Source: Spiroplasma endosymbiont of Dioctria linearis
GTDB lineage: Bacteria; Bacillota_I; Bacilli_A; Mycoplasmatales; Mycoplasmataceae
NCBI RefSeq assembly: GCF_964030865.1
Contig: NZ_OZ034984.1
Location: forward strand, 310,001 to 374,000
Reading direction: 5' to 3'
Length of the DNA: 64,000 nucleotides
A program made the translations under genes and the position numbers. The notes under the pieces were generated by a model. It searched no databases and had not been told where the DNA came from. It was given only the letters and a program-made list of their open reading frames with translations. Positions 15,566 to 64,000 of the stretch are shown here, piece after piece. Position 1 is the stretch's first letter. Every line of letters starts with the position of its first letter.

Positions 15566-17329
15566 ATGAAAAAATTATTAGGTATTTTAAGTGCATTGGG
15601 ACTTGTTGCAACATCAAGTTTAGGTGTTGTAGCATGTGGAACTAATGAAAATGTTGTTGATCAATCTCTTGATGAAGTTATTAAAGAATTTCAAAAAGAA
15701 ATTAATGATATAGTTAATAATCATATTTCAGAGAATAATAAAAATTTCTTTATTGTAGATTCTGATAACAATAGAAAAATGAAATTTTTTACAAAACAGA
15801 AATTTGAAAGTTATATGGGTGAACTAAAACTAAATAAGGCAGATGATTCTATTAGAAATGATATTATTGAAGATTTTAATAATATGTTTAAGGTAGATGA
15901 ATTAAAGGAAAAAATAAATAATTTACAAAAACTTGAAAAGTACTCTATCATATTAAACAACATCGGATCAGTTTTTAAGGATATAACTTTAAGTTCGAAT
16001 GATAAAATTTACTTAGAGAGTAGAGAACCTTCAACTTCTAAAGGAGTTTGATTTGGTATAACTAAATTTGAATTTTCAATATCAGTTAATTTTAAAAATA
16101 AAAGTAGTCAATTAGAGGAGTATAAAATTAGTGATGTATCTCGTACAATTTCATTGACTGATAATGAAAAAGTAGGTGGAGACATTCAAGAATTTTATAA
16201 TGAAATTGGTCAAACTTTTATAAAAAGTGAAATTAGTAGAATTAGTTCTAATAAGCTTATATTAAAAGATAAAACCTACTTAGAAAATGTTGATAATGAG
16301 ATATTAACTTTATTAAATAATGACTCATTTTCAAGAGAATTTATTCAGCTAGTTCAAAAAGAATTTGAAATTAATGTTTCAATTTCCTCTAAAGACTCTT
16401 TTGAGAACTTAAAAACAGATATTTCTTATAGAGAAAATGCAATAGATTTAGATGATAAATCTATTGATAAAATTACTGAATATTATAATTTATTTTTTAG
16501 AGAATCTGGCAGTCTTTCAAAAATAATTGATGAGACATATGAAGTTTCAAATAAATATATTAATGAAAAAATTATGAATTCATTAAATAATTTAGAGGCA
16601 AAGTTAGGTGAACAAGATGAGATGCAACAATTCATTAATGCTACTTTAAAATATTTAAATGTAAATTTAACTAAATTAAAATATGAAGTTGAAGAAAATA
16701 GTTATGTAGATATTCCTGATTTAAACTTAAATTTTGGACTTTTTAAGGATTCTAAAGATAAAGACAGAGTCTCATTAGATAAAGATATAATAAAAAATGT
16801 AAATCTTGCAAAGGAGGAGTTTTCAAGGACATATCAAACTAAATTGGATGATAAGTATCTTATTAAAGAGTTTCCAGAGGCTATTATTTCGTTTAAAGAT
16901 AAATCACAAATAATACGTAGATGAATATACGATGATTATCCTCCAACAATGCAATTTAAAAAAGGTACGAATAATATAAATGATTATACAAATTTAAATT
17001 ACAGTCATCTAATAGACTATAAAAATCAATTTCTTAATAGATCAAAGCAAAAAAATTTTAAATTTGATGTTTCATGAGAAGTTCCAAATGGATATGATTC
17101 AGAAATTGCGAACGATAGAATTGCTAGGGATATGGGTGGAAAAAACATTTATCAAAAACATTTAGCGATACGTACGAAAAGTGAAGAGGGATTTACTTTA
17201 ACTTGAAAAACTACAAAATTTAATTTAGTACTTGGATTGGATTATTTAAATTTCAATTTTAAATATTTTTTAGAATCAATTAGTAGTAAAACTTTTAGTA
17301 CAATTCTTTTATTTACTCATAATGATTAA
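15566..17329 (+). CDS. Lipoprotein of the lipoprotein/permease/ATPase cassette, copy 1
   Basis: 587-residue surface lipoprotein. The signal peptide ends in a lipobox (SSLGVVAC) with acylated Cys24, so it is anchored to the outer face of the membrane. The mature part is long, charged and helical with no membrane segments. It is clearly related to the lipoprotein at 62346: shared blocks are NKNFF, SVFK-I-LSSNDKI, VVGGDIQE/VAGDIQE and FVxIPDLxLNF near residue 390. The start has AAAAGGG upstream. It lies about 580 bp upstream of the permease gene, with a second copy of the same three gene types at 59-64 kb. It may be the substrate-binding or client component of that transporter. Function unknown. 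Confidence 0.8.
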
Positions 17330-17437
17330 TATTGAAAATAAATACTTGCTTATAAAAATTTAATAATATAGAGTATTCTATTATTTTTATTTTAGTCTTA
17401 TAAGTTTAAATATAAGAGAGAAAATAAATTTTACATG

Positions 17438-17480
17438 ACATTATCATAAAATTATTTTCTCAATAATTTTATGATAATGT
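17438..17480. repeat. Perfect 19-bp inverted repeat
   Basis: Arms 17438-17456 and 17462-17480 are exact reverse complements around a TTCTC loop. The right arm is at the same time part of the decayed permease fragment (ATTTTATGATAATGT), so the repeat may have arisen from an inverted duplication of gene debris rather than as a designed terminator. Confidence 0.6.
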
Positions 17481-17545
17481 GTTTAATTTCCATTAGTTTA
17501 TTACAACTTACATAACTAGCTTTAATAATAAACTTCTGATATCAA
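17463..17545 (+). pseudogene. Degenerate fragment of the cassette permease gene
   Basis: Bases 17466-17500 match the permease coding sequence about 17980-18020 closely (ATTTTATGATAATGT, then TTTAAT..C.ATTAGTTTA) and translate as FMIMCLISISL against FMIMYLISISL in the intact gene. Resemblance fades toward 17545 (CTTTAATAATA, TTCTGA). This looks like the remnant of a third, mostly deleted copy of the permease. Confidence 0.55.
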
Positions 17546-17819
17546 ATATAAACTTTAAAAAATAATTAAGCAACCAATTAATATAAAAAATATATCAAGT
17601 AATTTAGGAACTAAATTCTGAATATTATTAAGATGAAGGAGGCGATAAATACTTAATAAAAGAGAACTGCGGTATTGCTTAAATTTGATAATTTAATTAA
17701 GAAATTAATTAAGATATCAAAAATAATATTTTATGCTTTAGTTTTTCTTTATTAAACCATTAGGTTTTGTATTTAACAAATAAAAATTTGGGTAAAATAT
17801 ATTTTAAAATTAAATATTA

Positions 17820-17862
17820 TAAAATATTTTATGTCAAATTTTTTAAGACATAAAATATTTTA
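17820..17862. repeat. 16-bp perfect inverted repeat in the permease leader
   Basis: Arms AAAATATTTTATGTC and GACATAAAATATTTT (plus one outer pair) flank an 11-nt loop, about 45 nt upstream of the permease start. Copy 2 keeps only one arm (ATAAAATATTTTAA before 59025). It could be an operator, a leader hairpin or a terminator for upstream transcription. Confidence 0.5.
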
Positions 17863-17905
17863 ATTAATTTTGAATTTTTAAAATCTAAATTAGAGAGGAC
17901 GAAAA

Positions 17906-19762
17906 ATGAAAGATATTAAAAACAGCATTAATTTTTTTACAATATTTAAATTTCAACTTAAAAGCATTTTCAGGGAAAAGACTTTTATGATAATGTATTT
18001 AATCTCTATTAGTTTATCAACACTTTTAGGTTTAATAATGATGATATTTAAAATTTCTGAAATGAAAGTAATAATATTTAATTATTATGTTTTAATACAT
18101 ACATGTGCTATTGTTATTTTAATTTCTATGAGATTATTAAATTACTTTTTTTATATCAAAAAAACAGATAAAACAATTAATATTATTTCAACACAACATT
18201 TAAAAAGAACAAAGTTATTTATTGTAACTAATATTGTTATTTGATTTTATTGTTTTATATTGTTTACTTTTAATTATTTGATTATAATAATTACAAATTT
18301 TGGTAATGGAGTTGTTTTTAAAATATCAACAATCTATACATTATATTTATTTTTAATTATCATATTATTATCTAATTTCATATTATTTTTATTGTCTGTA
18401 CTTTCTCCCCAAGCAACAATAATTATAGTAACCTTAATAATGTCATTTAGTTTTATTTCATCGTTACCTTATCAGTTTTTAAAAACATCAGAAAAATCAA
18501 AAAATCTAACTTTTTCAGTAGAAGCAGGAAATGTACTTTTAAAATTGGATAGTATTTATGATGCTTTTGATTTAGTTTCTTATGTTAATAAATCTCAGAT
18601 TGCTTACCCCAATTTAAGTAAGTATATTACTGATAATTTTTTGAAACAACAGTACAGAATAAGTACTATAAGTACAGAAGAAAATATAAATAATAGAAAA
18701 AACCTTTGAAATGATTTAGGTATCATTAGTGATAAACCTGTAAAAATTCGTTTTGATGCAAAAATATCTTCAGTTCCTTTTGATTCTGAAATATCAGATT
18801 GAAAGTTTGATGATGAAATAAGATTGGAGACTTATTTAAAGTATAAATTTATTAGTACAAAACAGTTAGAAGATATTATTGAAAAATCAGATCCTAATCT
18901 CATTGATGAGAAAGGATATAATAAATTTAAAATTCTAAGTGAATTGTTAGAGTTTAATAATTTTATTAATTCTTATACAAATAGTTTTCAAGAAAAATTT
19001 TACTATTTATTTGATGACTATATTCAACTTGAAGCATGTGATAAAAGCAACATTGGAGAGTGTTGAAGCTCAATTGATGAACAAGGAAATACAAAAAATG
19101 AAAAAAATGGTTATATTGAGTTAATTAAAAGTATTGATAGAAGAAATGAAACAAAACCTACAAAAAGAGGATTTAAAATGTCTTATTTAAAGGAAATCTA
19201 TCAGAATCATTTTATGAATGTAAATGGTTTAAAAATACAGCACTCCTATGGTGAAAACATTATTGAATCAGATATGGATCAAAATTATAACTCTACTCAA
19301 AATTTTTATTCCTCTATTTATAATCCCTTGATGTTTACTACTAGAATATTAGAAGATTATTTTATAAATTATAGCTCAAATTATGTTATAGCTACAAATT
19401 ATAAAATCAATGAGTCCAGTAAAGAATGAACTGATTATCTTAGTTCTAGAAAAGTTTATAATACATTATTTTATTTTAATTTTTTGTCAAATGTATTTGT
19501 AAATTATACATATTATTCAGGATTAAGTTATAAAGATATCTGATTTGATCCAAATTTAAAGTCTAATATTTTATTAGACTCACAAAAAAATTTGCTATTA
19601 CCTTATAAAACTTATGATTTAAAAGTTAAAAATGGTTTAATTGAACCAAATTCTTATGATAGTGGTATTAAAACCTATTGATATTTATTACTTCAAATAG
19701 CTATTAGTTTATTTCTATATCTTATAGCTTTTTATAAATTTAATTCCTCAGATTTACAATAG
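17906..19762 (+). CDS. ABC-type permease with large extracytoplasmic domain, copy 1
   Basis: 618-residue membrane protein. Five or six hydrophobic helices fill residues about 25-195. They are followed by about 390 hydrophilic residues with conserved blocks (SIYDAFDLVSYVNKSQIAYP, YLKEIYQNHFMN, SIYNPLMFTTRILEDYF), and a single C-terminal helix (about 592-611) closes the protein. This topology puts a large domain outside the cell between the membrane helices. It matches no ABC permease family I can name with confidence, but the next gene is an ABC ATPase overlapping in TAGTG fashion, so the pair forms a transporter. The paralogue at 59025 has the same length and nearly the same sequence. The Cys-containing segment ACDKSNIGEC is kept in both copies and could form an external disulfide. 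Confidence 0.78.
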
Positions 19763-19785
19763 TGAAAGAAAAGAGTGAAAATAAT

Positions 19786-20715
19786 ATGGAAAAATTAATT
19801 GTTTTTGATAATTTTTTAAAAAAATTTAAATCTAATAAAATTGGACCAATAAGTTTTCAGATAGAAAAGGGAAAAATATGTGGTCTTTTAGGAAGTAGTG
19901 GTAGTGGAAAGACTGTTATTTTAAATTCCTTATTGGGTATTATTAAAAAATATAGGGGAACTATATTAATTGATAAAATAAAAAGAAAATCATGGAAATA
20001 TCATAAATCAAATAGAAAAATAGGTTATTATACTCAAATGGATTTCGCTTTACATGACATATCAGCATATAATTTTTTGAAAGATAGCTGTATGATAATG
20101 GGAGTTAAAAAGAAAAAAATAAAGGAAAAGGTTAAATATTGAATGCAATATTTTGATGTTTGAGAGCATCGAAATAAAAAGATTAAAGATTTTTCATGGG
20201 GAATGAAAAATAGAATAAATCTAATACTTTGTTTTATTAAAGATCCTGAAATAATAATTATGGATGAACCAGGAGCAAATTTGGATTCTTATTGAAGAAA
20301 TAAAGTAAAAAATTTATTGATTGAATTTTAAAAAGAAGGAAAAACAATTATAATTACTGTTCATAATATTGATGAAATTTCAGATATTATAGATGAATAT
20401 ATTATTTTGGAAAGTGGTAAAAAAATTTTTGAAGGTTCAAAAGAGCAGTTGAATATATACCCGAAGTATAAAATATATATTAAAGATTTATTTGATGTTC
20501 AAGAATTTAGAAATTATTTGTTACAAGAAAATATAATTTCTTTTAAATATGATCAAAATGAAAATTCTTTAGTAATTGCTGCTCAAACATATCGTCAAAT
20601 TAATTATTTATTTTTATATTTAATTAAAAAGAATCTACCCTTGATAAATTTAGTAAAGTTACCTATAAACATGGAGTCTATTCATAAAGCACTTGAGAGT
20701 CGCAAGAGCAATTAA
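19786..20715 (+). pseudogene. ABC transporter ATPase, copy 1, interrupted by an in-frame TAA
   Basis: The intact homologue (60905-61834, 309 residues) shows this copy to be the same gene with a nonsense codon at 20329-20331: the paralogue has AAA (Lys) at that position and both genes stay in register afterwards. Before the stop are Walker A GSSGSGKT (36-43), a degenerate signature FSWGM in place of LSGGQ (136-140) and Walker B with Asp160-Glu161 in IIMDEPG. After the stop, in the same frame, are the H-loop (ITVHNIDE) and the C-terminal domain. A 181-residue product without the H-loop His would not hydrolyse ATP normally. It could be non-functional, or re-initiated at 20407. The start taken is ATG 19786; GTG 19762 overlapping the permease stop is the alternative. 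Confidence 0.8.
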
Positions 20716-20993: not shown

Positions 20994-22429
20994 TAATAAG
21001 CGATTATGTCCCAAAATACAAGATTTATCTAATAAATATATCTTGTATTTTTTCTTTTTCTATCAAAAAAATATCAGTTAGTTGCTTTTCAAGGAGAGTC
21101 AATTTTGGGCACTTTAGTAGTTTCAAATTCTTCATTAGATAGTGTTTTAGCATTTCCATGTAAGCGTTCATCTTCAACTTGAATGAGATTGTAAATATCA
21201 TTTCCAATTAGTGCATAATATTTTTTATTTATAGTTTCCATAACCATTACTTTTAACTTTGGTTTAAAGTAAATTGGAGTAAAGCCTTTACAAATAAATC
21301 ACTTAGTTTTTTTAAAACTAATACTATGACCATTATCAATAATTCTTTCACTTCGATAAGAGAAAACAATATATTCATCTTGATCAAATTTTCTAGTTAC
21401 TGATTCTAATTGGTCTAAAGGTATTGAAAAATCTTGGTTGTATTCCTGAATAAGATGGGGTAAATAATTATTTAACTGCTCAATATTTTTTAAATCTAAG
21501 AGTCTAATTATTTGAGGTCATCTTCTTTGCAGTGTTCCAAAAGTTCTTTCGACTAATGCTTTTTCTTGGGGGATTGATGTTGTTTTTGTATTTACTCCTA
21601 AAGAGTGAAAAATAAATTGTAATTGTGTATTTGAAACACTATCACCAAAATGGTCACGATTATTTTTACTACTAAAAACATTGTGATTATCACTAACATT
21701 TAGTTTTGGTAAACCATAATGTTTAAAGGCTTTTTTATAGATATTATAATAACTTTCAGTAGTTTCTTGTTCGCTGAAATAGCCTGCCAAAATTCTTTTA
21801 CTAGCTTTATCAATTACAATATGTAAATGACATTTTAAGTTTTTAATTCACTGATGATTTGAAGCATCAGTTTCGTAGATTTCTCCAAACTTTACAATTT
21901 TCTTTTGCGTAGGATGGGGTTTGCTTGTTATAATTGATTTTGAAAGATAATCTCTTGTTAAATTTTCTTGGTTTGTGGCCTTTAAATTTTTACGAATATC
22001 TTTTTTTGTTTTTCTGTTAAGAGTATCAATTAAAATATTTTCTTCTATTAAAATGTGTCTAATTGCGGAGTAACTTATTTTCTTTTTTCAAGTTAGTTCT
22101 CAATAATGTTTAATACTAAAGTCATAATATTTCGTTTGAAATAATTGTTGAATTTTATTTATAGGTATTTTATTGGTATTTTTATGAATAAAAGCTTTTG
22201 CTCCAATTTCTTGATATTCTTTAAGTTTTCTTCTTGTGTGTCTAACACTATAACCTAATTTATAGACTGTATTTTTAATAGACTCTTTTCTTAAAGATAA
22301 TTGTTTAATTAATCTTAGTTGTTCTTGTTTCATGGTATTTAATAGTAGTCCTTTCATAAAACCTCCATTTATTGATTATAAAGTAGGACAAAGTCGCTTG
22401 TTAATATGTAGGGACATAATCGCTTATTA
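20994..22429. mobile_element. Insertion sequence, ISNCY/IS1202-like, with 19-bp terminal inverted repeats
   Basis: A 1436-bp element bounded by perfect 19-bp inverted repeats TAATAAGCGATTATGTCCC (20994-21012) and its complement (22411-22429). It carries one transposase gene on the minus strand. A second, imperfect copy of the terminal motif (TAGGACAAAGTCGCTTG, 22384-22400) lies just inside the right end. Target-site duplications are not evident in the flanks. It landed in the orfA of an older IS3-type element. Family is assigned from the transposase and is moderately sure. Confidence 0.8.
21029..22357 (-). CDS. Transposase of the insertion sequence
   Basis: 442-residue DDE transposase. The N-terminus has a helix-turn-helix (LRKESIKNTVYKLGYSVRHT). 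The catalytic core follows: first Asp in YETDASNHQW (about 165-170), second Asp223 in VSDNHN and Glu270 in EKALVERTFG. A C-terminal basic domain ends in RKRKNTRYIY. SDNHN replaces the commoner DNG, which argues for the ISNCY/IS1202 group rather than IS3 or IS30. The reading frame is intact under code 4, so the element may still be active. A strong GGAGG precedes the start, and a 9-bp hairpin (21016-21024 / 21040-21048) lies at its 3' end. Confidence 0.85.
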
Positions 22430-59024: not shown

Positions 59025-60881
59025 ATGAAAGATATTAAAGCTAATATTAGTTTTTTTACAATATTTAAATTCCAGCTTAAGAGCATTTTCAGGGAAAAGA
59101 CTTTTATGATAATGTATTTAATATCAATTAGTCTATCAACTTTATTAGGTTTAGTAATAATGATATTTAAAACTTCTGATATGAAAGTTATAATATTTAA
59201 TTATTATGTACTAATACATACGTGTGCAATTGTGATTTTAATATCGATGAGATTATTAAATTATTTTTTTTATATTAAAAAAACAGATAAAACTATTAAT
59301 ATTATTTCAACTCAGCATTTAAAAAGATCAAAACTTTTTATTGTAACCAATATAGTTATTTGATTTTATTGTTTTATATTGTTTACAATTAATTATTTAA
59401 TTATAACAATTACAAATTTTGGCAATGGAGTTGTCTTTAAAATATCAACAGTTTACACATTATATTTATTCTTAATTATCATATTATTATCTAATTTTAT
59501 ATTGTTTTTATTGGCTGTGCTTTCTCCCCAAGCAACAGTAATTATAGTTACTTTAATAATGTCCTTTAGTTTTATATCAGCGTTACCTTATCAATTTTTA
59601 AAAACATCAGAAAAATCAAAAAACATTAATTTTTCAGGAGAAACAGGAAATGTAATTTTAAGAGTCGATAGTATTTATGATGCTTTTGATTTAGTTTCTT
59701 ATGTTAATAAATCTCAGATTGCTTACCCCAATTTAAGTAAGTATATTATTGATAATTTTTTGAATCAACAGTATAGAATAAGTACTATAAGTACAGAAGA
59801 AAATATAAATAATAGAAAAAACCTTTGAAATGATTTAGGTATCATTAGTGATAAACCTGTAAAAATTCGTTTTGATGCAAAAATATCTTCAGTTCCTTTT
59901 GATTCTGAAATATCAGATTGAAAATTTGATGATCAAATAAGATTGGAAACGTATTTAAAGTATAAATTTATTAGTACAAAGCAGTTAAAAGATATTATTG
60001 ATAAATCAGATCCTAATCTCATTGATGAGAACGGATATAATAAATTTAAAATTCTAAGTGAATTGTTAGAGTTTAATGATTTTATTAATTCTTATACAAA
60101 TAGTTTTCAAGAAAAATTTTATTATTTGTTTGATGATTATATTCAACTTGAAACATGTGATAAAAACAACATTGGAGAGTGTTGAAATTCAATTGATGAA
60201 CAAGGAAATACAAAAATTGAAAAAAATGGTTATATTGAATTAATTAAAAGTATGGATGGAAGAAATGAAACTAAGCCTACAAAAAGAGGATTTAAAATGT
60301 CTTATTTAAAGGAAATCTATCAGAATCATTTTATGAATCTAAATGGTTTAAAAATACAACACTCCTATGGTGAAAACATTATTGAAACGGATATGGATGA
60401 TAATTATAACTCTGAACAAAATTTGTATAATTCTATTTATAATCCATTGATGTTTACTACTAGAATATTAGAAGATTATTTTATAAATTATAGTTCAAAT
60501 TATGTTATAGCTACAAATTATAAAATTAATGAGTCAAGTAAAGAATGAATTGATTATCTTAATTCTAGAAAAGTTTATAATACATTATTCCATTTTAATT
60601 TTTTATCAAATGTATTTGTAAATTATACCTATTACGCAGGAATGAGTGATAATGATATCTGATTTGATTCAGATCTAAAGTCTAATATTTTATTAGACTC
60701 ACAAAAAAATTTTCTATTACCTTATAAAACTTATGATTTAATTATCAAAAATGGTTTAATTGATCCAAATTCTTATGATAGTGGTATGAAAACATATTTT
60801 TATTTATTAATTCAAATAGTTATTAGTTTATTTTTATACCTTATAGCTTTTTACAAATTTAATTCCTCAGATTTACAATAG
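59025..60881 (+). CDS. ABC-type permease with large extracytoplasmic domain, copy 2
   Basis: 618 residues, the same length and nearly the same sequence as the permease at 17906, with scattered substitutions (for example KANISFFTI against KNSINFFTI, DDNYNSEQNLYN against DQNYNSTQNFYS). N-terminal five or six helices (about 25-195), an external region of about 390 residues and one terminal helix are retained. Differences are more frequent in the external part. The stop codon overlaps a GTG by one base (TAGTG), just before the intact ATPase gene. Ribosome site AGAAGGCGGG. Confidence 0.8.
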
Positions 60882-60904
60882 TGAAAGAGAAGAGTGAAAA
60901 TAAT

Positions 60905-61834
60905 ATGGAAAAATTAATTGTTTTTGATAACTTTTTAAAAAAATTTAAATCTAATAAAATTGGACCAATAAGTTTTCAAATAGAAAAGGGAAAAATATGT
61001 GGTCTTTTAGGTACTAGCGGTAGTGGAAAAACTGTTATTTTGAATTCATTATTGGGTATTATTAAAAAATATAAAGGAAGTATATTAATTGATAAACTAA
61101 AAAGAAAATCAAGGAAATATCATAAATCAAATAGAAGAATTGGATATTACACTCAAATGGATTTTGCTTTACATGATATATCAGCATATAATTTCTTGAA
61201 AGATAGCTGTATGATAATGGGAGTTAAAAAGAAAAAAATAAAGGAAAAAGTTAAATATTGAATGCAGTATTTTGATGTTTGAGAACATAGAAATAAAAAA
61301 CTTAAAGATTACTCATGAGGAATGAAAAATCGAATGAATCTAATAATTTGTTTTATCAAAGATCCTGAAATAATTATTATGGATGAACCTGGAGCAAATT
61401 TGGACTCATATTGAAGAAATAAGGTAAAAAATTTATTGATTGAATTTAAAAAGCAAGGTAGAACAGTTATAATTACAGTTCATAATATCGATGAAATTTC
61501 AGATATTATAGATGAATACATAATTTTGGAAAATGGTAAAAAAATTTTTGAAGGCACAAAAGAGCAGTTAAATATATATCCAAAATATAAAATTTATATT
61601 AAGGATAACTTTAATGTTCAAGAATTTAGAAAGTATTTATTACAAGAAAATATAGTTTCTTTTAAATATGATCAGAATGAAAACTCGTTAGTAATTGCTG
61701 CTCAAACATATCGTCAAATTAACTACTTATTTTTATATTTAATTAAAAAAAATTTACCATTAAAAAATCTAGTAAAGTTACCTATAAATATGGAGTCAAT
61801 TCATAAAGCACTTGAAAATCGCAAGAACAATTAA
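60905..61834 (+). CDS. ABC transporter ATPase, copy 2 (intact)
   Basis: 309-residue ATPase and the reference for the broken copy at 19786. Walker A is GTSGSGKT, the signature is YSWGM rather than LSGGQ, Walker B and D-loop are IIIMDEPGANLDSYW, and the H-loop is ITVHNIDE. The C-terminal 90 residues (LNIYPKYKIYIKD to the end) form an extra domain kept in both copies. The Trp of the signature is TGA here and TGG in copy 1. ATG 60905 is the preferred start; GTG 60881, overlapping the permease stop, is possible. It forms a transporter with the permease just upstream. Confidence 0.88.
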
Positions 61835-62345
61835 ATATAACTAGTTAACTATGATTTTTTTTGTAAAACAATTACTCAGTAAAATTACTTTTTACTTTGT
61901 TATTATTAAAGTAATTGTAGTAATCTAGATTCTAATTTAGGTTGAAAACTTATTTTAATAACCTCTTTTCTTAAAGCAATTTTCTTAAAGCAATTTTCTT
62001 AATTAATTATTATTTTTATTTTATTTAATGATATCTCGTATAAAGCTTTCATTTATTTATTACAAAAAAATTCAAAATTTTTGTTAATTTAGAAGGGTAT
62101 AATTGTTTATTATTTATAGTCTAAATTAGATACTTCAAAAAAATAACTATTTTAATTAAAGATTTTGAGTTGTTCTTAAAATATTAATTATTAGTAATTA
62201 TTTTAAATATAATATTGTAAATGCATATTTTTATAATATTATATTTTGTTATAAAGTAGAACTGTAAAAAAAAAAAAAAAATAGCAAAAAAATTCAATTT
62301 AAGACTTAAAAAAATTGTTTATGTTATTTTTTATAAGGAGGAAAA
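61835..62345. other. Intergenic region with short tandem repeat and A16 tract
   Basis: About 510 bases without a supported gene. It contains a 14-bp tandem repeat (TTTCTTAAAGCAAT, two full copies at 61967-61994 and a partial third) and sixteen A (62266-62281) about 65 nt before the lipoprotein start. TATAATATTATA and TATGTT sequences on either side of the A tract are possible -10 boxes. The ribosome site ATAAGGAGG is strong. Confidence 0.5.
62266..62281 (+). repeat. A16 homopolymer upstream of the lipoprotein gene
   Basis: Sixteen consecutive A in the leader or promoter region of lipoprotein copy 2, mirroring the T17 tract before lipoprotein copy 1. Such tracts slip during replication and can switch expression. 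Confidence 0.5.
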
Positions 62346-64000
62346 ATGAAAAAAATTTTAAGTTTATTAGCTACAGTAGGTTTAGTGGCTACGTCAAGTT
62401 TAAGCGTTATTTCATGTGGAAAAAAAAGCTTACCTGAATTAGATGTTGAAAACTTGATTAAAGAGTTCAAAGAAGAGGTAAATAAAATCATAAGAGATCA
62501 TGCTGCTGAATATAACAAGAACTTTTTTTTGCTAGATTCAGAAAAAAATAGTAACTTACTATTTTTGACAAAAGAGAAAATTTTAAATTTTCTTAATGGT
62601 GAAGAAATAAAAAATAGTAATGATTTAATTAGAAAAGATTTGGAAAAAGATTTTAATACACTTTTTAAAACTAATATTATTAAAAGTAAAATTAATAATT
62701 TAAAAAATAAGGAGAAGTATCAATTAATTTTAGGAAATGTTGACTCAGTTTTTAAAGGAATTGAATTAAGTTCAAATGATAAAATATTTATATCTTCTAA
62801 AAACTCTTCTACAACAGAAGAAAAAATTTGATTTGGAACAACCAAGTTTGATTATTCAATATTAATAAATTTTAGTAATAAAATTGGTCAAATCGAAGAA
62901 TATAAAGTTACAAACATGAATACAATTATTTCTATTACTGATAGCGAAGTAGTAGCAGGAGATATTCAAGAAATGTATACAAAGATTGATAATACTTTTT
63001 TAAAAAATGAAATAAGTAAAATATATTCAAATAATTTACTTTTACTTGAGAAAGATTATTTGCATTTAAATTTAAATAGTGAATTTCAATCTTATTTAAA
63101 TGGTCAAAATTATAGAAAGGAATTTACTAACTTTATTTCTAAAGAGTTTAGAATTAATCTAAAATTAGATGGAAATAATTTTAATGATTTTAATCAAACA
63201 ATGGCATATAGAAATGATTATTCAATAAAACAAAATCATATTGAAATGCAGAATTTTCTAAAAAATAAGGATACTCAAATCTCAAACTTAATAAAAGCAA
63301 CAGAAAATGAAGTAGAAAAAATAGCTGATACTGATATAAAAAATAATTTGGATTTAATTTCACCTTCATTATATAATGACGAAGAATTAAAAAGTATAAT
63401 TAAATCTAGTTTAAGAATGTATAAAATGAAATTAGGAAGTATTTTTTATAAAATTGATGAACAAAATTTTGTAGAAATTCCTGATTTATATTTGAATTTT
63501 TGATACACAAAAAATAAAGAAATCACTTCAAGAAATGATTTTGAAAAAGATATAATTAATAATATAATTTTTACAACTGAAAAATATATTGAAGTATTTG
63601 AAGTATCTACTTCTTCAAAAAAAGGATGACTTTTTGATTTTAAGAGTGCTAGAATCATAGATTTATGATTCGAAAATGGACTAGAAGCAAAAACCGAAAA
63701 TATGAGTGAATATTCAAGTTTTTTAAAACCTGAATTATTAGATTTAAGAAATAAATTTCTTAAGGAGTCAAAGCAATCAATATATGAACTAGATATAACT
63801 TCTACTAGTACACCAACTAATGATGTTTTTAGAGCACGTAATTCAAACATCTGAGGAAAAAAAAATACAAGGGTGGAACTTGGAGTATTTGTGCCTATGT
63901 TTACAATTATAAATTGTGATATTACTTTAAAGTTTGATTATTTGCAAATTTTATCTGAAACAATTACTTTCGAATGACTCTCTTCAGCATACTTAGTACT
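62346..64000 (+). CDS. Lipoprotein of the cassette, copy 2 (runs off the window)
   Basis: At least 551 codons, open to the window end. The signal peptide MKKILSLLATVGLVATSSLS leads to a lipobox (LSVISC) with acylated Cys24, so the product is a surface lipoprotein. It aligns along its length with the lipoprotein at 15566 (NKNFF, VDSVFKGIELSSNDKIF, VAGDIQEMY, FVEIPDLYLNFW) but is far more diverged than the adjoining permeases and ATPases are. This fits a surface-exposed, fast-evolving component. Order relative to the transporter differs from copy 1 within the window, but a further permease could lie beyond 64000. Confidence 0.85.

What the first reader, a model, noticed from the sequence alone, without database searches (positions are those of the whole stretch)
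15566..20715. Duplicated lipoprotein/permease/ATPase cassette of unknown function
Two sets of the same three gene types occur 40 kb apart (15.6-20.7 kb and 59.0-64.0 kb). The permease has an unusual build: five or six N-terminal helices, about 390 external residues and one terminal helix. The ATPase has a signature loop FSWGM/YSWGM instead of LSGGQ and an extra C-terminal domain. Permease and ATPase are nearly identical between copies while the lipoproteins are strongly diverged, as expected if a constant transporter serves a variable surface protein. I know of no described family with this composition. Possible roles are lipoprotein processing or export, surface variation, or peptide handling.
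Basis: partly seen in the sequence, partly recalled or inferred. Interest (0 to 1): 0.78.

Follow-up and report, generated by a model that had tools for sequence, protein, structure and literature searches.

The report
ABC-2 pump paired with hypervariable lipoprotein
This Spiroplasma-like bacterium carries about 14 copies of a three-gene unit in which a membrane pump of a known export class, fitted with an unusually large outer domain, is paired with a fast-changing surface lipoprotein, which suggests an energised surface device aimed at host or rival molecules.

Summary
The window's two cassettes belong to about 14 permease/ATPase pairs in a 1.23 Mb, code-4 genome, and to a family in 42 of 60 genomes of its taxonomic family. 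The transporter is not classless. The predicted structure is a six-helix ABC-2 exporter fold (NosY Z 19.9), with a ~390-residue ectodomain inserted between TM5 and TM6. The SWGM signature fits the S-x-G-M form of ABC-2 ATPases. Most intact permeases (69 of 84) have a member of one lipoprotein superfamily within three genes, and none was found full-length in five genomes lacking the permease. Lipoprotein and permease distances track each other within genomes (r 0.955; 0 of 2000 shuffles reach it). Lipoproteins evolve much faster (omega mostly 0.5-0.8 against about 0.1), form tandem mosaic arrays and carry a hypervariable segment near residues 485-590. Copy 1's ATPase is broken by a stop. My leading reading is an outward-acting pump whose dedicated, diversifying lipoprotein meets membrane-active host or competitor molecules, by analogy with LanI/LanFEG and PmtCD. 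The substrate is inferred, not shown. It is a new variant of a known kind.

The parts
15566..17329 (+). Lipoprotein of copy 1 (LP1, 587 aa), lipobox ...VATSSLGVVAC
   Evidence: NCBIfam LP_plasma signal; member of the lipoprotein superfamily
16919..17254 (+). Approximate hypervariable segment of LP1 (residues ~452-563), mapped by alignment to paralogues
   Evidence: borders approximate
17906..19762 (+). ABC-2 permease of copy 1 (618 aa)
18464..19675 (+). Extracellular part of permease 1 (residues ~187-590) between TM5 and TM6
   Evidence: AF2 secondary structure of the 91% identical copy 2; hydropathy
19762..20715 (+). ATPase of copy 1, interrupted. The GTG at 19762 overlaps the permease stop; the ATG at 19786 is the likelier start by comparison with paralogues
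20191..20205 (+). Signature motif FSWGM of ATPase 1
20329..20331 (+). In-frame TAA at codon 190 of ATPase 1 (invariant Lys in the paralogues); the H-loop histidine and C-terminal domain lie behind it
59025..60881 (+). ABC-2 permease of copy 2 (618 aa), the protein modelled
59583..60794 (+). Extracellular part of permease 2 (residues ~187-590)
60881..61834 (+). Intact ATPase of copy 2 (317 aa) with YSWGM signature and ~75-residue C-terminal domain
61310..61324 (+). Signature motif YSWGM of ATPase 2
62346..64000 (+). Lipoprotein downstream of copy 2 (LP2, 557 aa). It runs 19 bases past the window (genome 372346-374019)
63663..63929 (+). Approximate hypervariable segment of LP2 (residues ~440-528)
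   Evidence: borders approximate

Best explanation
Each cassette encodes an ABC-2 exporter-type transporter, presumably two permeases and two ATPases, with a ~390-residue extracellular domain inserted in the TM5-TM6 loop. It also encodes a dedicated membrane-anchored lipoprotein that most likely works on that ectodomain. The class, the pairing and the lipoprotein diversification are shown here. The next steps are inferred. The lipoprotein's variable C-terminal region binds membrane-active molecules made by the host or competitors, such as antimicrobial peptides, bacteriocins or lipids. The pump then uses ATP to expel them from the membrane, much as LanI plus LanFEG or PmtCD do. Duplication of whole cassettes and recombination among lipoprotein genes would supply a repertoire of specificities. 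In some relatives a single ATPase appears to serve several permeases.
For: AF2 model (pLDDT 89.7, pTM 0.84) with the ABC-2 fold: NosY Z 19.9 over 261 residues, ABCA1 17.9, ABCG2 17.6. The permease profile finds PmtD at E 1.5e-5, aligned over TM1-5. Some members hit Pfam ABC2_membrane_2/4. The ATPase is nearest drrA, lantibiotic-protection and ABCA-type ATPases. 69 of 84 intact permeases have a superfamily lipoprotein within three genes and 65 have the ATPase. Full-length lipoproteins were not found in five permease-less genomes. Within genomes, permease and lipoprotein distances correlate at r 0.955 (0 of 2000 shuffles), and at r 0.79 after removal of recent duplicates. Lipoprotein omega is 0.50-0.83 in three recent duplicate pairs, against 0.09-0.16 for permease and 0-0.08 for ATPase. 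Lipoprotein arrays show a hypervariable segment and mosaicism.
Against: No substrate or expression data. No complex could be predicted, so docking of lipoprotein on ectodomain is inferred. In two between-species orthologue pairs lipoprotein omega is only 0.16 and 0.38, so diversification is not uniform. 15 intact permeases have no superfamily lipoprotein within three genes, some perhaps missed by the detector. Several close relatives lack the system, so it is not essential to the group. An ABC-2 fold does not prove transport: NosDFY, the best fold match, is understood to drive extracellular maturation of a partner rather than export a peptide (general knowledge).
Confidence: 0.4

Rival explanations
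1. Mechanotransmission. ATP hydrolysis moves the ectodomain, which drives work by the lipoprotein outside the cell (adhesion, capture, unfolding or processing of host proteins), without a transported substrate, as in NosDFY or FtsEX and in spirit like MIB-MIP with its F1-like ATPase.
For: Best fold match is NosY. A large conserved ectodomain (0.42 mean column majority against 0.49 for membrane and cytosolic parts). Dedicated lipoprotein partner. Some relatives fuse the ATPase to a long coiled coil or encode a cytosolic protein next to it. MIB-MIP is followed by an F1-likeX0 ATPase thought to act in immunoglobulin cleavage (PMC10581049).
Against: In the lipoproteins only the lipobox Cys is invariant, so no catalytic site is visible. 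No Pfam enzyme domain.
Confidence: 0.27
2. Exporter of a peptide or toxin made by the cell, with the lipoprotein as immunity or release factor.
For: ABC-2 exporters such as PmtCD export peptides; PmtD is the best sequence match.
Against: No small ORF shared beyond close relatives was found around 84 cassettes. No biosynthetic neighbours seen in the gene tables.
Confidence: 0.13
3. Lipoprotein export, processing or surface switching by the transporter.
For: Constant transporter, variable partner; tandem lipoprotein arrays beside a transporter.
Against: Lipoproteins have ordinary Sec/lipobox signals and there is no outer membrane. The permease has the ABC-2 fold, whereas lipoprotein extractors (LolCDE) have the FtsX-type fold (general knowledge). 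Lone lipoprotein arrays sit away from any permease.
Confidence: 0.1
4. Nutrient importer with the lipoprotein as substrate-binding protein.
For: The usual role of lipoproteins next to ABC genes in Gram-positive-type cells (general knowledge).
Against: Permease has the ABC-2 exporter fold. No substrate-binding-protein fold among the lipoprotein matches, best Z 6.7, although the tool notes that absence from its list is inconclusive.
Confidence: 0.05

Closest known systems
PmtCD (phenol-soluble modulin exporter, ABC-2)
   Same: Best sequence relative of the permease (E 1.5e-5 over TM1-5); one permease plus one ATPase.
   Different: PmtD is ~250 aa and lacks the 390-residue TM5-TM6 insertion; I know of no dedicated hypervariable lipoprotein partner for it.
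NosDFY(L)
   Same: NosY is the best fold match (Z 19.9 over 261 residues); an ABC-2 transporter working with extracellular partners.
   Different: NosY has no large inserted ectodomain; partners are NosD and the copper chaperone NosL, not a hypervariable lipoprotein family.
LanFEG + LanI (lantibiotic immunity)
   Same: Six-helix permeases plus a lipoprotein that binds the peptide (PMC5786555); the ATPase scores high against the lantibiotic-protection model.
   Different: Two different permeases (LanE, LanG), a different lipoprotein, no large ectodomain.
BceAB-type resistance transporters
   Same: Large extracellular domain in the permease, peptide resistance.
   Different: Ten TM helices with a 200-250 aa domain between TM7 and TM8 (PMC5786555); here six TM and a 390-residue domain between TM5 and TM6.
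Mycoplasma variable surface lipoproteins (Vsp, Vlp, VlhA and the like)
   Same: Multigene, recombining, lipobox-anchored surface proteins.
   Different: To my knowledge none comes with its own ABC-2 transporter; switching mechanism not looked for here.
MIB-MIP with F1-like X0 ATPase
   Same: Mollicute surface machinery coupled to an ATPase complex (PMC10581049).
   Different: Different ATPase class and different surface proteins.

Membership tests
ABC-2 type transporters | Six-TM ABC-2 permease fold | tested here: met
   AF2 pLDDT 89.7; NosY Z 19.9, 261 residues, model range 8-616
ABC-2 type transporters | Sequence match to ABC-2 family models | tested here: inconclusive
   Window permeases hit no Pfam model; PF12679 hits 3 and PF12730 hits 2 of 72 members; profile finds PmtD at 1.5e-5
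ABC-2 type transporters | Linked ABC ATPase of the drrA/CcmA/ABCA kind | tested here: met
   PF00005 4e-25; drrA 3e-37; ABCA3 2e-38; adjacent in 65 of 84 loci
LanFEG/LanI immunity | Two different permease subunits E and G | tested here: not met
   One permease gene per cassette
LanFEG/LanI immunity | Lantibiotic biosynthesis genes in the cluster | not tested
   No scan for Lan genes was made
BceAB / type VII (FtsX, MacB, LolCDE) | FtsX-type permease; ten TM with a domain between TM7 and TM8 in BceB | tested here: not met
   Six TM helices with the ectodomain between TM5 and TM6, ABC-2 fold
Substrate-binding-protein importers | Lipoprotein with the two-lobed binding-protein fold | tested here: inconclusive
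   No such match listed, best Z 6.7
MIB-MIP | Ig-binding protein plus serine protease | tested here: inconclusive
   No such Pfam family in 58 lipoproteins
Mycoplasma variable surface lipoproteins | Lipobox-anchored multigene family with mosaic variation | tested here: met
   LP_plasma signal, invariant Cys, 18 intact full-length copies in the genome, mosaic array
Mycoplasma variable surface lipoproteins | Reversible on/off switching | not tested
   No search for invertible promoters or slippery repeats was made

The most novel reading that the evidence does not exclude
A recognition system in which a hypervariable, recombining lipoprotein family is energised by a dedicated ABC-2 machine through a new ectodomain, each lipoprotein lineage matched to its own permease lineage, possibly doing extracellular work rather than transport.
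Probability: 0.3. Interest if true: 0.8.

Novelty: new variant of a known kind. Interest (0 to 1): 0.6.

Why it matters
Wall-less insect and plant associates spend much of their coding space on surface lipoproteins of unknown use. Here one large lipoprotein superfamily is tied to a specific energised machine, which makes its role testable. It also adds an ABC-2 variant with a ~390-residue domain in the TM5-TM6 loop, a place where the ABC-2 structures matched here carry much shorter loops. Neither the permease nor the lipoprotein is covered by a Pfam or NCBIfam family beyond the signal peptide, and I found no description in the papers held.

Tried and rejected
Homology between lipoprotein and permease ectodomain: profile alignment, whole and by segment, found none. 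Internal repeats in the lipoprotein: no sequence support. Known fold for the lipoprotein: Foldseek E no better than 0.13 in PDB, best VIA Z 6.7 over 83 residues; the one viral hit at E 9e-5 has TM 0.10, so it is not meaningful. Conserved peptide gene in the cassettes: none beyond close relatives. Scan of genome contigs with the permease: no confirmed hit although relatives exist, probably because TGA is read as stop in the confirmation step. The weak hits in other families of the order proved to be fuller ATPase-permease loci, without the lipoprotein in one family and with a weak lipoprotein match in another.
Full report
What was checked. The window is positions 310001-374000 of a 1,230,581-base, single-contig genome that reads TGA as tryptophan. 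A genome search with the copy-2 permease finds 14 permeases, and its ATPase partner finds 14 ATPases of 58-98% identity that pair with them one to one. The usual order is lipoprotein, permease, ATPase, often with only about 2-22 bases between lipoprotein and permease. Copy 2 departs from this: its lipoprotein is downstream. Copy 1's ATPase has a TAA at codon 190, where other copies have an invariant lysine, so it is probably inactive unless another copy's ATPase stands in.

Distribution. A profile of the 14 permeases finds members in 42 of 60 genomes of the same taxonomic family, in 7 of 12 genera, with up to about 14 copies per genome. Beyond that family only weak matches appear in 298 genomes of the order. 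Those were read in detail for a few genomes: one group has ATPase and permease next to ezrA without this lipoprotein, another has lipoprotein, permease and ATPase, partly broken by insertion sequences. In at least four genomes with 2 to 7 permeases there is only one ATPase of this type, away from the permeases examined. This suggests a shared ATPase, which is an inference.

What the transporter is. The permease model has mean pLDDT 89.7 and pTM 0.84. An amphipathic helix is followed by TM1-TM5, a short helix, the ectodomain (about residues 187-590) and TM6. Structural comparison places the membrane part with ABC-2 transporters: NosY Z 19.9 over 261 residues at 3.5 A, a mycobacterial efflux pump 18.0, ABCA1 17.9, ABCG2 17.6. 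The sequence profile independently finds PmtD at E 1.5e-5 over TM1-5, and some members hit Pfam ABC2_membrane_2 and _4. The ATPase is of the drrA, lantibiotic-protection and ABCA kind. Its SWGM keeps the S and G of the signature and resembles SGGM in ABCA3 and SSGM in another ABC ATPase of this genome. GldA aligns across the ATPase nearly to its end (residues 19-306 of 317), so a C-terminal extension is not unique either.

The lipoprotein. 93 of 113 lipoprotein-like proteins near these loci fall in one similarity cluster. Of 84 intact permease loci, 69 have a member within three genes on the same strand and 65 have the ATPase. In a search of 13 genomes, all seven with a detected permease had full-length lipoproteins, while five without one (G039, G041, G012, G005, G027) gave only signal-peptide matches. 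The thirteenth, G010, has the ATPase and a lipoprotein, but the match lies in an implausibly long open frame that suggests masked sequence, so I set it aside. Lipoproteins often outnumber permeases and form arrays, for example three in a row at 289750-296106 in this genome and seven in G029. The predicted lipoprotein fold is confident (pLDDT 85.3, pTM 0.82) but matched nothing solved. No homology to the ectodomain was found.

Pairing. Across 64 permease-lipoprotein pairs, distances between permeases and between their neighbouring lipoproteins were compared within each genome. The correlation is 0.955 over 129 pairs and none of 2000 within-genome shuffles reached it. Keeping only permeases at least 35% different leaves r 0.79, still above every shuffle, the highest of which was 0.786. 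Pairs are not independent, since cassettes duplicate as units, so this shows that lipoprotein and permease travel and stay together, and fits but does not prove physical contact.

Variation. In three recent duplicate pairs of this genome omega is 0.50-0.83 for the lipoprotein, 0.09-0.16 for the permease and 0-0.08 for the ATPase, at broadly similar dS. Two between-species orthologue pairs give lower lipoprotein values (0.16, 0.38). Variation concentrates near residues 485-590, where identity falls to about 66-80% between copies that are much more alike on either side in several comparisons. Windowed omega reaches 1.7 and 2.5 in two pairs there but is below 1 in others, so positive selection is suggested, not established. 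In the lone array, copy 292 matches copy 294 at its 5' part and copy 289 at its 3' part at 98-100%, a mosaic that indicates recombination.

Interpretation. The lipoproteins have their own secretion signal, and these cells have no outer membrane, so the transporter is unlikely to be needed for their export. An ABC-2 fold argues against nutrient import. A conserved pump, a dedicated partner and a hypervariable outward part fit a device facing changing host or competitor molecules. LanI with LanFEG is the best described analogue: the lipoprotein binds the peptide and the transporter expels it (PMC5786555). The alternative that the machine does mechanical work on the lipoprotein is not excluded, and the best fold match (NosY) leans that way. 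Which is right needs the experiments listed.

Limits. Predictions are of single chains; no complex, expression or phenotype data were available. Lipoprotein detection by profile may miss diverged members. Literature was searched only in an open-access library and no description was found.

Noticed in passing
L128:6105-6773, L115:6719-7519, L114:9485-10360, L109:2238-2654: A small cytosolic protein (45-residue N-terminal domain, then a Q/N/P-rich tail) is encoded next to the shared or linked ATPase in several relatives (12 of 60 genomes match the domain); it is absent from this genome.
   Followed up: partly
L088:8252-10774: In one genus (g7) the ATPase carries a ~600-residue coiled-coil extension, and the operon holds three lipoproteins.
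   Followed up: partly
window 61835-62345: A 32-residue fragment resembling a lipoprotein (E 0.002) lies between ATPase 2 and LP2, possibly a remnant.
   Followed up: no
window 21029-22357: Transposase of the ISNCY_2 type just downstream of copy 1, on the minus strand; several cassettes lie beside insertion-sequence genes or fragments.
   Followed up: no
L082, L083, L084, L062:7966-9721: Several cassettes in G045, and one in G042, are broken by stops and frameshifts, so the family is being lost in some lineages.
   Followed up: no
L012:12389-13751: A decayed lipoprotein stands before the cassette at genome 243233, and another lipoprotein follows its ATPase.
   Followed up: no
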